This document shows positions 1 to 7,100 of a stretch of DNA of 64,000 nucleotides, piece by piece. The first letter of the stretch is position 1. Each line of letters starts with the position of its first letter. Source of the stretch: Cyclospora cayetanensis. Its lineage: Eukaryota; Apicomplexa; Conoidasida; Eucoccidiorida; Eimeriidae. The stretch is from assembly GCF_002999335.1 (NCBI RefSeq), contig NW_020312043.1, forward strand, positions 1 through 64,000, written 5' to 3'. Both the position numbers and the translations under genes were made by a program. The notes below the pieces were generated by a model. It was given only the letters and a program-made list of their open reading frames with translations, searched no databases and was not told the origin of the DNA.

Positions 1-9
1 TTTTTTTTT

Positions 10-72
10 GAAGCAGAGGACGGCATACGGTACCCTCTTGTAACTGGAGTTCTGACGTGACATCTTCCGATC
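10..72 (+). other. Illumina P7/index adapter-like sequence (probable artefact)
   Basis: The first bases are a run of T followed by a string that lines up, with scattered mismatches and small gaps, to the Illumina multiplexing adapter: AAGCAGAGGACGGCATACG near 11-29, an index-sized variable block, ACTGGAGTTCTGACGTG near 43-59 and TCTTCCGATC near 63-72. The order and spacing of the three blocks match the published adapter as I recall it. The mismatches suggest the adapter came in through an error-prone read. I read this as unremoved library sequence at a contig end, not biology. Confidence 0.85.
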
Positions 73-78
73 CAGTCG

Positions 79-142
79 TATACATACACACGCATACACA
101 GACACACACAGACACACACAGACACACACACACACACACACC
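79..142 (+). repeat. CA-rich microsatellite
   Basis: This is an imperfect CA dinucleotide tract interrupted by CACACAGA units, directly after the adapter-like block. No coding frame is supported across it. It lies downstream of the MORN gene's stop codon. Confidence 0.8.
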
Positions 143-359: not shown

Positions 360-2519
360 CTACGCAGGGAGGGAGGCCTCGTGCTGAGGCCCCTTCTCAA
401 GGTGTCTAGCCGAAATAGGCTTACCCACGCGCTTCTTGCCGCTAGGCATAATTTCGAAGAGTTGTCCATGCATCTTATTTCTGTGAAATTCCCCGCTGTA
501 TCGCCTGCCGTCTCTCACGTGGAGTTTCCCCTTGCCCTCCCGTAGACCATCTTGAAAGCCACCTTCATATTTGCTGTACTGCCCACCCGGCCATGTGTAC
601 ACTCCTGAGCCGTTCATGAGACCCTCCTTCCACGCTCCGTCGTACTTGCACTTGTTCGCCCACACGTAAACGCCCTTGCCTGTGGAATGTGCATCATATG
701 CAACACTTGCGGTGCATGCACCACCGCTACCCTCGGGCACCCCTTCAGGCTGTAGACTCCAGCACGCAATTGCTAAAGAGGCCACGGCTGCAGGGTATAA
801 TGTACCATCAATCAAATCGGCCTTAAAACTGCCTTCATACGTAGAACCGTCCGGGAAACGAATTTTGCCCCTGCCGACCTTGTCACCGTTTCTGCAGCGC
901 CCAATTGAGGCAACACACGTACACAATTCAGCCTATGGGGACTAAGATTTCTAGAGGTGGAAGCGAACATTGAAAATACATTGCTGTTGGTTTGACGCCC
1001 TTTCCACCTCTTCAAGCCATGGCTTGCATTCCACAGGCTCGGCTGTCTTAGAGCGAGCCACCCGCCTGTACGCTCGCGAGTATGGATCTGCAAGAAAGAC
1101 CCACTTGAATTCTCCCTCAAATACGGTACCGTCCGACCAGGTCTCTACTCCCCTGCCATTCTTGATGTCCATCTTGAATTCGCCAACGTAGCTGCGCGCA
1201 CACCTCAAGGACATGGATACACGTATTTGTAGCACTCCCGATGCCACTTGCGAGCCTCTGCTATGCACTCTAACAGAGGCACAGCTGCATAGAACAGTGC
1301 TGCTGCGTTGGATAAGGGGCCCATCCAGTTATCCCCCCCGTTCGGGCGATGTATTTATGATCCTCGACCATTTGTTGCACGCAAGCTTCGCCTTCCACTC
1401 TGCTACCGCATCGCCCTTTTGCCCCTGTGCCCTCTCCTTCCTGCCCTAGTCCCCGTCGCTCTGTGCACCGTGTTCTGAAAAACCATTTCCCCCCGTTCTC
1501 TCAGCGCCTCAAGCTCCCTTTATGTGGCGCTTTGCCTTTTGGCTGTCCCCCGGTCAAGCAAAACTACCCTCCCCCCTCTACCTTCCTGCGAGAGCCCGTG
1601 ATACGCCCTTGGCAAGCCTTATGCAGGGAGAGTGCTGATCCTCACGAAGACCCGTCTTCGTTTGTGAGTTTGCCTTTCCCATCCCCTTTTCCATCCTTCC
1701 AGTGCCCTTCGTATCGCTCGCCTGCAGGGGATTCCCAGATACCCTGCCCCTCGAGCTTCCCGTTGACAAACTGCCCTGTGTATGTCGATCCATCGGAAGC
1801 TTTTAGCGTCCCATGGCCGTCAATCGCGGATCCCTACGCACCCCAGACACCCGCGAAGCACACAGCAAAACCGTCCTCTACTAGCTTAAGAATACGTGTC
1901 TTATTGCCTCTTCCAGCACATAGGTCCCATGATACAAATAAACGGCAATTCCGCCTTTTTTGGCTGTGCGCGCACACGCGGTGAAGGGACGAAAGCACTC
2001 CATGGCACTGGCGTAGAAGGTCAAGAGAGTGAAGTAGGCATCTGTGAGAGGTTTCGCTATCAGGAGCAGCTTATTTTAAAGAGGGGCATAGGTTGAGTAG
2101 AGTGTGACCTTCCATGTGCCTGCGTAGGTCATGCCACCGCTGAGCTTCACTTCGTCCCTTTTCACTCTCCCGCTGCCGCAGGGCTCCCCCGGAATCTCTT
2201 GCAGGTTGTCTGGGGGGGTTCCAACCTTCATAATGCCACCTTCTCTGCCTGCCGGGGGGGGCGTACAGACTGTCCCTACGACAATGGGGGCATCAACTTC
2301 TGCGGTAGATAGCTGAGGGGCGGCGGATCCGCCAAGGGCGCATGCTTCGTTAGGCCGCATCTTGCCAGCCGGTTGAGCTGTAGCGACACTTTGCAGCACC
2401 ACCTCGGGCAGAGGGTCACCTTGAGTGCCCCCACCAGTCCCTGGAGGACCGTTACGATGGCCAGCGGTCGCGACGGAAGCCCCCTGTGGGGAAGCCGCGG
2501 ATGACTGTGTGCAACCCAT
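360..2519 (-). CDS. MORN-repeat protein with MGC acylation-type N terminus
   Basis: Five exons join in frame: 2109-2519, 1646-1833, 1105-1191, 806-891 and 360-679, giving about 363 residues. Every junction has GT-AG ends and matching phase. I chose the ATG at 2519 because it opens with MGCTQSS. In that context Gly2 can be myristoylated and Cys3 palmitoylated, as in membrane-anchored apicomplexan proteins. An unstructured Gly/Pro/Ala region of about 120 residues follows. The rest is eight or nine MORN repeats, for example YVGEFKMDIKNGRGVETW and YDGAWKEGLMNGSGVYTWP, with exon borders falling inside repeats. MORN proteins bind lipids or scaffold the inner membrane complex and basal ring in apicomplexans. 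A scaffold at a membrane is inferred here, not shown. A possible GT donor late in the last exon (KKRV) leaves the C terminus slightly uncertain. Confidence 0.85.
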
Positions 2520-4111: not shown

Positions 4112-7100
4112 ATGGACGGAGGCCACCCGGTCATGACGACCTCCACGGGGGCCCCCGTGGGAGACAACCAAAACTCTCAGACAGCTGGGCCGTATGGTCC
4201 TGTGGTACGTCCTCCCCCCTTTCTCTCGAAAACGGAACGCGAGACTGTAGGATCTCTGGGGGGTAATCGTTAAGCGAGCTTAAGGCAATTGAGTGGAGGG
4301 TTCCTGTCCGTTCAGGTCATCACAGACTTCCATCTTCTGGACAAGCTAGCGCATTTCGATCGCGAGCGCATCCCAGTACGGCTTCAGCTAGGCACTCCCC
4401 TGTGGTGTATGAAAAGCCTTTTCGATGGCCTCCAGGGTGGCCCAACGTTTTTCACATTAGATGATGGGTCGTTCATGGCGGGCAGTGTCAACAGCTTCAT
4501 GTGCAGCGAATGTGGTGTTTTGTTAGTGGTGCCTGTGATGATCTACTGGTTAATTAAGGAGACTGGAACATGGCGTCAAGGAGGGCGGGTGTGCCTAGGA
4601 TTGAATGTGCTCGATTGTTGGAGAAGCTAGCCATTCTTTTCCACTAGAGCCAGCACACGCTAACATTTCAGAGCGGGAACTCTGCGTGTTTACAGGAACG
4701 CGTAGTGCATGCAAAAGGAGCCGGGGCTCATGGATACTTCGAAGTCACCCACGACATAACGAAGTCTGCCTTCCACACCTACAGTTCATGTTGCTTAGTG
4801 TGTATGTCCAGTGTTTGGAGCTTCTCAACCAATGTTTGTAATTATGGTCTGCATGTTTGTTCTAAATGCGCTTCGATGATGCTTCTACTGCCCCATTTCC
4901 AAGAGAGCTCTGCTAGGGGCCATTTCTGACTCTCTCTCGCATCCTTTCTTCCACCTGTTGCCTGATCTTCAACGACTGAATGGCGTATATATATATATTG
5001 ACAGATACCTCTTTGTGGCCGCGTCTTCAGGTGTGCCCATCTGCCACCAGCTACATGTATGACGTTGCGTAACTGTAGCCTCTAGGGAGCTCGTCTCCGA
5101 TCCTCTATTCTAACGTCGCTTGGCTAGGCCTTGTCAGCTTTCTGTTCGCTTGCTTGCTTCCACATTTGCCTTGGCCTGCTTCCTTTTCTGCTGGCGTCAC
5201 TCCACTTCATAGAAATCAGACTCCTGTCTGGCTGCCTGCAGGTACTGCAAGGCAAGGTTGTTCTCTTCCATGGGCAAGCGAACACCGGTGTTTGTTCGCT
5301 TCTCTACCGTCGGGGGAGAGAAGGGCAGTGCCGATACTGCACGAGATCCTAGGGGCTTCGCGATCAAGCTGTACACGGAGGACGGCAACTGGGATTTGGT
5401 AGCCAACAATACCCCCGTTTTCTTCGTCAGAGATCCTCTGAAGTTTCCCGATTTTATCCACACACAAAAAAGACACCCCCAGACAAATTTGCCGGATGCC
5501 GACATGTTTTGGGATTTCCTTTCTCTCTCGCCGGAGTCCATTCACCAAGTTACGATCCTCTTTTCTGACAGAGGAACACCCGATGGCTATAGGCACATGA
5601 ACGGCTACTCGAGCCATTCCTTCAAGACCGTGAACGCGTAAGTTGATGGGGGTCGAAAGGCCGACGGCTTCAACAACATGGAGGGAGACGCATGTCTACC
5701 TCCTCTTCTTCTCACGTTCGCTTGATTTCAAATCTAGGGGCTCTTTAGGGAAAACCTCCTTCGTGGCAAAAAGTACTGAAACGCATGGTAGGAAATTACT
5801 TGTTTTGAGTCAAGGCGATCGGACTAGCCGTGGACATGCATACATGCAAATACAGGCTATGGCTTTGATTTGCCCGTCCTTTGCACAGGTTGCCACACGT
5901 ATACCTTACCATTTCATGCATACATGTACAAGGCGTCTGGATAGATGTGCGAAAATGTGTGGGTCTATAAATATCTGCCAAAGCATGCCGGGTGTATGTG
6001 TTCATTCAATTTTGCGTAGCCTGTTTGTTTCAGCTGGTACTGTTTCGTCTTTTACCGGTTTCCTGGGCTCGCATACTTTTGTATATGCGCATTTCATCAC
6101 GCACTTTCAAGTTCATCATTTTTTGCTTGCGAACTCGTGGCGCTGCAGTGCCGGCGAGGTCTTTTACGTCAAGTTCCATTTGAAGACAAATCAAGGCATC
6201 AAGAATCTTACAGCCAAGAGGGCTCACCAGCTGGCCTCTACAGATCCTGATTATGCTACCCGCGATCTGTTCAACTTCATTGACGCGGGAAACTATCCTT
6301 CGTGGACTCTATGTGTCCAGGTTAGGCAGGCTGACGACTCCCCCCCTTTGCCGCATCGCAGCTGGGAGCCGGCCTTAGCGGGATGCCACTGTATCTCCGC
6401 TAACCCCGTATTGTCGTATCAATGTGTCTTGCGTTCGCCTCTTGCGCGTATGTTTATCGCTTCTTCTACCTCATCCTGCCACCCTTCATAATACAGCATT
6501 TCCGACTTTGTGCACCCGTTTGTCTGCTCGTGTGGTGCTATTAGTTGTGGTGCTGTTAGTTTCGGGAGTCGCCTTGTGCTTTTCTCTCCAGTCTCCGCAT
6601 GGCCTCCCCCTGCCAGCCGTATCTAGCAGCCGTCGGCGCGTCTGTTACTCTGATTCTATGTGCATCTACACGGATCCGTCGATGTGCGTCTGTGTATATG
6701 TGTATGCATATGTGTATGCATATGTGTGTGTGTATGTGTGTGTGTGTGTGTGCATGGCTGGTGTCCTCTGTCTCCAGGTGATGCCCGTCAAGGCTGCCGA
6801 GTCGTACAGGTACAACGTGTTGGACGTGACTAAGGTGTGGCCTCATCATGACTATCCCCTGCAGCCCGTGGGAAGGCTGGTGCTCGACAGAAACCCAAGC
6901 AATTACTTCCAGGAGGTTGAGCAGGCCGCCTTCTCCCCAGGGCATCTCGTTCCAGGCATTGAAGCGTCTGAAGATAAAATGCTGCAGGGGCGACTCTTCT
7001 CGTATCCTGACACCCACAGGCACCGACTGGGAGGTACGCTTTCGCTGCATTGCAAGGCAAACACGCACAACTTAGACGCATCAAGGCCGGAAAGTGTATC

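What the first reader, a model, noticed from the sequence alone, without database searches (positions are those of the whole stretch)
10..72. Diverged Illumina adapter at the start of the window
Three separate blocks match the P7/index adapter in the right order and spacing: AAGCAGAGGACGGCATACG, then after an index-sized gap ACTGGAGTTCTGACGTG, then TCTTCCGATC. Chance similarity over some 60 bases is implausible. This suggests an untrimmed contig end, so the MORN gene's downstream context may be artificial and other contig ends of this assembly may be affected.
Basis: partly seen in the sequence, partly recalled or inferred. Interest (0 to 1): 0.75.

Follow-up and report, generated by a model that had tools for sequence, protein, structure and literature searches.

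The report
Sequencing adapter left on contig end
The first 73 bases of this parasite contig are not parasite DNA but an error-ridden copy of an Illumina sequencing adapter that was never trimmed off, and similar remnants sit on other contig ends of the same assembly; it is an ordinary artefact that should be removed.

Summary
Confirmed artefact. Window base 1 is base 1 of contig C8. Bases 10-73 align without a gap to Illumina P7 + 6-nt index + read-2 primer site: 47 of 58 fixed adapter bases match, against at most 30 in 2,000 shuffles and 33 elsewhere in the window. Searches of the assembly (43.2 Mb, 392 contigs) gave 14 P7 copies including C8 and one P5 copy, each within 263 nt of a contig end. 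A screen of 160 of 784 ends found 6 with P7, 4 of them new. The "divergence" is scattered substitutions plus one base in which this library's adapter differs from the canonical one (T for A; 12 of 14 copies T, none A); that T form occurs verbatim at contig ends of unrelated public assemblies. Two published primer pairs point to Cyclospora cayetanensis. The MORN ORFs (from base 360) lie outside the adapter; what really lies left of base 74 is missing. No biology: trim it.

The parts
1..9 (+). T9, cut by the contig end; fits the T10 stem of the flow-cell P7 oligo (recalled), i.e. the poly-A that a read shows after running through the whole adapter
   Evidence: Sequence. The 10 bases before the adapter hold 6-10 T in each of the 12 other copies that have sequence there; C159 has none
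10..33 (+). P7 segment with errors
   Evidence: Ungapped alignment to P7 (sequence recalled)
34..39 (+). 6-nt index, CCTCTT here (AAGAGG in read direction)
   Evidence: CCTCTT exactly in 8 of 14 copies
40..73 (+). Read-2 primer site with errors and the library's T at base 53
   Evidence: the T form is verbatim in unrelated assemblies
74..141 (+). Start of the insert, mostly (CA)n-type microsatellite (tandem array 82-141); best other copy in the genome at the right end of contig C269 (94% over 73-141)
360..1268 (-). MORN-repeat ORFs of the neighbouring gene (360-926 and 951-1268), outside the artefact
   Evidence: Pfam PF02493, E 6.7e-20 and 9.2e-7

Best explanation
The first 73 bases are adapter read-through. 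A short library fragment ended at or in a (CA)n microsatellite; the sequencer read through the fragment into the read-2 primer site, the index, P7 and the flow-cell T stem, with many errors. Adapter trimming missed the error-laden read, and the assembler, with few reads at the microsatellite, kept it as the contig end. Shown: adapter order, register and spacing, contig-end position, outward orientation, recurrence at other ends, a shared index and a shared non-canonical base. Inferred: low read quality, too few reads for a clean consensus, escape from trimming and from the database contamination screen because no copy has a long exact match to the standard adapter.
For: Alignment and controls. 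Window base 1 = contig base 1. 14 P7 copies at ends of 14 contigs and 1 P5 copy at C133; no hit of these searches is internal; reversed-pattern controls 0. 6 of 160 screened ends score above all 640 control alignments (top control 16.4; hits 20.6-54.4). Index CCTCTT exact in 8 of 14, T at the variant site in 12 of 14 with no A; since later queries carried those letters, the fairer subset is C8 plus the 5 contigs found with the canonical-A, N-index query: T in 5 of 6 (the other C), index exact in 3 of 6. In the MAFFT alignment of 10 copies gaps fall only in the outermost columns, so the errors are substitutions, as Illumina errors mostly are. Sequence outside the adapter on C181 and C336 matches nothing else in the genome, as expected of signal past the template end. 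With match +1 / mismatch -5 the best segment score of the 14 copies against the canonical adapter is 11-20.
Against: 11 of 58 mismatches is a lot for an assembled consensus, and no reads were available to show depth or quality. The expected rise of errors along the read is not secure: 55 of 462 in the read-2 site against 82 of 335 in P7 over all 14 copies, but 21 of 198 against 19 of 144 (p 0.50) in the fairer subset of 6. C159 has neither the T nor the index. The canonical query did not return C8 itself. The exact assembly and its library kit are not identified.
Confidence: 0.98

Rival explanations
1. Genuine genomic sequence that happens to resemble the adapter (chance, or a dispersed repeat of the parasite).
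For: 11 of 58 mismatches, so not a clean adapter.
Against: Shuffles reach 30 and random window stretches 29, against 47; every copy found lies at a contig end with P7 outward; a P5 copy at another end; T stem and index in register; the T form verbatim at ends of unrelated bacterial and viral contigs.
Confidence: 0.005
2. An adapter, but from an error-prone long-read platform or of a degenerate synthetic design, rather than Illumina read-through with errors.
For: Error rate far above ordinary Illumina.
Against: No gap in 64 aligned bases of C8 and none inside the alignment of 10 copies (the other 4 were only aligned ungapped); the errors differ from copy to copy while index and T are shared, which a fixed degenerate oligo would not give.
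Confidence: 0.015

Closest known systems
Illumina TruSeq-type P7 index adapter read-through (T10 stem + P7 + 6-nt i7 + read-2 primer site; sequences recalled)
   Same: Order, spacing, 6-nt index, T stem, contig-end position
   Different: T instead of A at one read-2 site base in 12 of 14 copies; scattered substitutions
T-form adapter at contig ends of unrelated public assemblies (e.g. L126 = IMGVR_UViG_3300003437_000057; three contigs of MAG CATBQD01)
   Same: Read-2 site with the same T, verbatim; L126 also carries a T stem, intact P7 and a 6-nt index
   Different: Error-free in the searched stretch by construction of the search; other indices
P7-to-read-2 adapter sequence in deposited phage genomes (e.g. 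Klebsiella phage phiKp_32, Salmonella phage TS13; 22 of 50,697 phage records match)
   Same: Lies within the first 72 bases of those two records
   Different: Other organisms; 91% and 89% identity to the T-form query

Membership tests
Illumina P7 adapter read-through | P7, 6-nt index and read-2 site in ungapped register | tested here: met
   47 of 58 fixed bases, no gap
Illumina P7 adapter read-through | T10 flow-cell stem outside P7 (recalled) | tested here: met
   9 of 9 T up to the contig edge in C8; 6-10 of 10 in the 12 other copies with sequence there
Illumina P7 adapter read-through | At a contig end, P7 outward, insert inward | tested here: met
   14 of 14 copies found (places; contig lengths)
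Illumina P7 adapter read-through | Recurs with the same index at other ends of the assembly | tested here: met
   Exact index in 8 of 14 copies; 3 of 6 in the subset found without the index in the query
Illumina P7 adapter read-through | Partner P5 adapter present in the assembly | tested here: met
   One copy, C133:16-71, 82%; none among the 160 ends
Canonical TruSeq read-2 site | A in GTTC[A]GACG | tested here: not met
   12 T, 1 G, 1 C, 0 A in 14 copies: a vendor or custom form rather than the canonical oligo
NuGEN Ovation adapter | Index AAGAGG belongs to the vendor list and the vendor oligo has the T | tested here: inconclusive
   Index list only recalled; paper search for it returned 0; published C. 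cayetanensis genomes used that kit
Illumina P7 adapter read-through | Low depth or low base quality of the reads at bases 1-73 | not testable with these tools
   No reads held

The most novel reading that the evidence does not exclude
A library-specific adapter with one base changed from the canonical TruSeq sequence was trimmed against the canonical sequence and so leaked preferentially: with one canonical query each, 5 P7 remnants against 1 P5, and 6 against 0 in the 160-end screen (which used the T form of P7). The same T form is left at ends of unrelated public assemblies, so it can serve as a marker of the kit and is a candidate missing entry in adapter screens.
Probability: 0.35. Interest if true: 0.25.

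Novelty: not a real feature. Interest (0 to 1): 0.1.

Why it matters
Housekeeping value only. Bases 1-73, and the outer stretches of the 18 other contig ends found here, should be trimmed from this assembly, and gene models, primers or markers should not be placed there. The T form of the read-2 site is worth adding to adapter screens, because a screen built on the canonical sequence loses its exact run across that base.

Tried and rejected
Other adapter designs (8-nt index P7, TruSeq P5, Nextera P5 and P7, old paired-end primer, small-RNA primer, single-read adapter; all recalled) match the first 150 bases at only 22-33 bases, close to their best elsewhere in the window (20-33); those that share P7 get their score there. 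The row 'T10+P7' (28 of 68) is no counter-evidence: the contig edge cuts the tenth T, so the script could not place it.

Index identity: the best of 24 recalled TruSeq indices is 2 mismatches away.

C8's own 30-nt altered read-2 stretch is in no viral contig (0 matches): its particular errors are not a shared design.

Source species: Eimeria falciformis was considered for its 43.7 Mb and dropped because it was sequenced with 2 x 100 and 2 x 50 reads and has 753 contigs (passages of PMC4287421), while C57 has 263 nt from contig edge to insert. The rabbit Eimeria assemblies do not fit in size (39.7 and 52.8-73.3 Mb; passages of PMC12659853). Protein searches did not name the species: only catalases of many organisms, nothing, Eimeria flavescens at 53% as the best named hit.

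C269 as the true left neighbour of C8: 94% over 69 nt, reaching exactly base 73, but the test whether C269's end continues as C8's unique sequence failed (23-33% of 2,000 control pieces score as high). Left open.

A profile search of the genome was not possible, so the 14 + 1 copies are a lower bound; the 160-end screen found 4 ends that the searches had missed (C14 right, C62, C64 and C100 left). A further weak candidate (C11 left, score 14.4) is below the top control (16.4) and is not counted.

Full report
WHAT IS THERE. The window is G000:C8:1-64000, so its base 1 is the first base of a contig (contig length 143,540). Bases 1-73 read T9, then 64 bases that align without a gap to P7, a 6-nt index and the Illumina read-2 primer site: 47 of 58 fixed bases (adapter sequences recalled). 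The best of 2,000 shuffles of the first 150 bases is 30, the best place elsewhere in the window 33, the best of 300 random 400-nt window stretches 29. The T9 fits the T10 stem by which P7 oligos are fixed to the flow cell (recalled): in read direction this is the poly-A that follows complete adapter read-through.

OTHER CONTIG ENDS. A search of the assembly with C8's own 73 bases found C111. The canonical adapter with an N index found C111, C181, C336, C162 and C176, though not C8 itself. Their consensus found these, C8, and C343, C364, C97 and C25. Two short patterns with up to 3 mismatches added C326, C50 and C57 and C159, with no match to the reversed control patterns. That makes 14 P7 copies including C8; P5 was found once, at C133:16-71. 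The inner end of each lies at most 263 nt from a contig end (places; contig lengths), with P7 (or P5) outward. I then fetched 160 of the 784 contig ends, chosen by contig number (C8's left end not among them), and aligned them directly: 6 of 160 exceed all 640 control alignments, namely C111 and C97 (known) and C62, C100, C64 and the right end of C14 (new); no P5 copy did. Together 18 P7 ends and one P5 end are known, a lower bound.

WHY IT LOOKS DIVERGED. The 14 copies match 39-52 of 58 fixed bases (C159: 47 of 57), with scattered substitutions that differ from copy to copy. Two features are shared and so belong to the library: the index CCTCTT (8 of 14 exact) and a T in GTTC[T]GACG (12 of 14; one G, one C, no A). 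Among C8 and the five copies found with the canonical query, which if anything favours A, the T is present in 5 of 6 and the index exact in 3 of 6. Whether errors rise along the read is not settled: 55 of 462 in the read-2 site against 82 of 335 in P7 for all 14, 40 of 330 against 52 of 240 for the 10, but 21 of 198 against 19 of 144 in the subset of 6; some copies were found by patterns lying mainly in the read-2 site, which biases the first count.

THE T FORM ELSEWHERE. Three strings of the T form are in no main text of the paper library (0 papers); two strings of the canonical form are in 1,555. In sequence collections the T form occurs verbatim in 7 public genome contigs (34-base pattern) and 3 viral contigs (26-base pattern), in all 10 near a contig end; L126 shows T stem, intact P7 and another 6-nt index. 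The stretches outside the adapter on C181 and C336 match nothing else in the genome, as expected of a read that has run past its template. Scored as match +1 / mismatch -5, which is how I recall the usual vector screen, the copies reach only 11-20; this would explain why they survived deposition, but it is inference.

SOURCE. Two of the four published genotyping primer pairs for Cyclospora cayetanensis (table in passages of PMC7147239) were tried and fit this genome: GT3-F exact with its partner exact at the published 220 bp, GT1-F exact with its partner, one mismatch, at the published 175 bp. GC of the window is 53.5% (published genomes 52%). Published C. cayetanensis genomes were made with NuGEN Ovation Ultralow V2 libraries and 500- or 600-cycle MiSeq kits (PMC4653782, whole text; PMC6182803, passages), which fits the long read-through. 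I did not identify the deposited assembly: those papers list about 44-45 Mb and 669 or more contigs, G000 has 43.2 Mb in 392. That the T form and the index AAGAGG are NuGEN's is recall only (one search found no paper).

CONSEQUENCE FOR THE NEIGHBOURHOOD. The insert begins in a (CA)n-type microsatellite (array 82-141), where the short-read contig broke; in 10 of the 14 copies the insert starts directly in a simple repeat. The MORN ORFs at 360-926 and 951-1268 are on the minus strand with the last stop at 360, so coding sequence is not touched; what lies left of base 74 is simply unknown. C269's right end shares 69 nt at 94% up to exactly base 73, but a test for continuation was negative.

VERDICT. 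The observation and its reading are right; the feature is a technical artefact, not biology.

Noticed in passing
window 73-141 and C269:15260-15328 (L002): The right end of contig C269 matches C8's first genomic bases at 94% over 69 nt, up to exactly the adapter junction; it may be the true left neighbour, but a continuation test was negative.
   Followed up: partly
L117, L121, L122 (MAG CATBQD01), L118, L119, L120, L123, L124-L126: The T form of the Illumina read-2 site stands verbatim at contig ends of unrelated bacterial MAGs and viral contigs, with various indices.
   Followed up: partly
KY555145.1 150479-150542 (Caulobacter phage Ccr29; L247:201-264): A P7 to read-2 adapter (92% to the T-form query) lies inside a phage genome described as complete, between two annotated genes, 150 kb from the record start: possibly two contigs joined over an adapter.
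   Followed up: partly
G000 contigs C75, C76, C103, C104: Apart from long contigs that recur about every eleventh number (as when names are sorted as text), lengths fall with contig number; but C75 (90,060) precedes C76 (90,180) and C103 (75,000) precedes C104 (75,490), as if some contigs had been trimmed after sorting.
   Followed up: no
window 5258-5641: Catalase exon (PF00199, E 6.6e-70) a few kb from the MORN ORFs.
   Followed up: no
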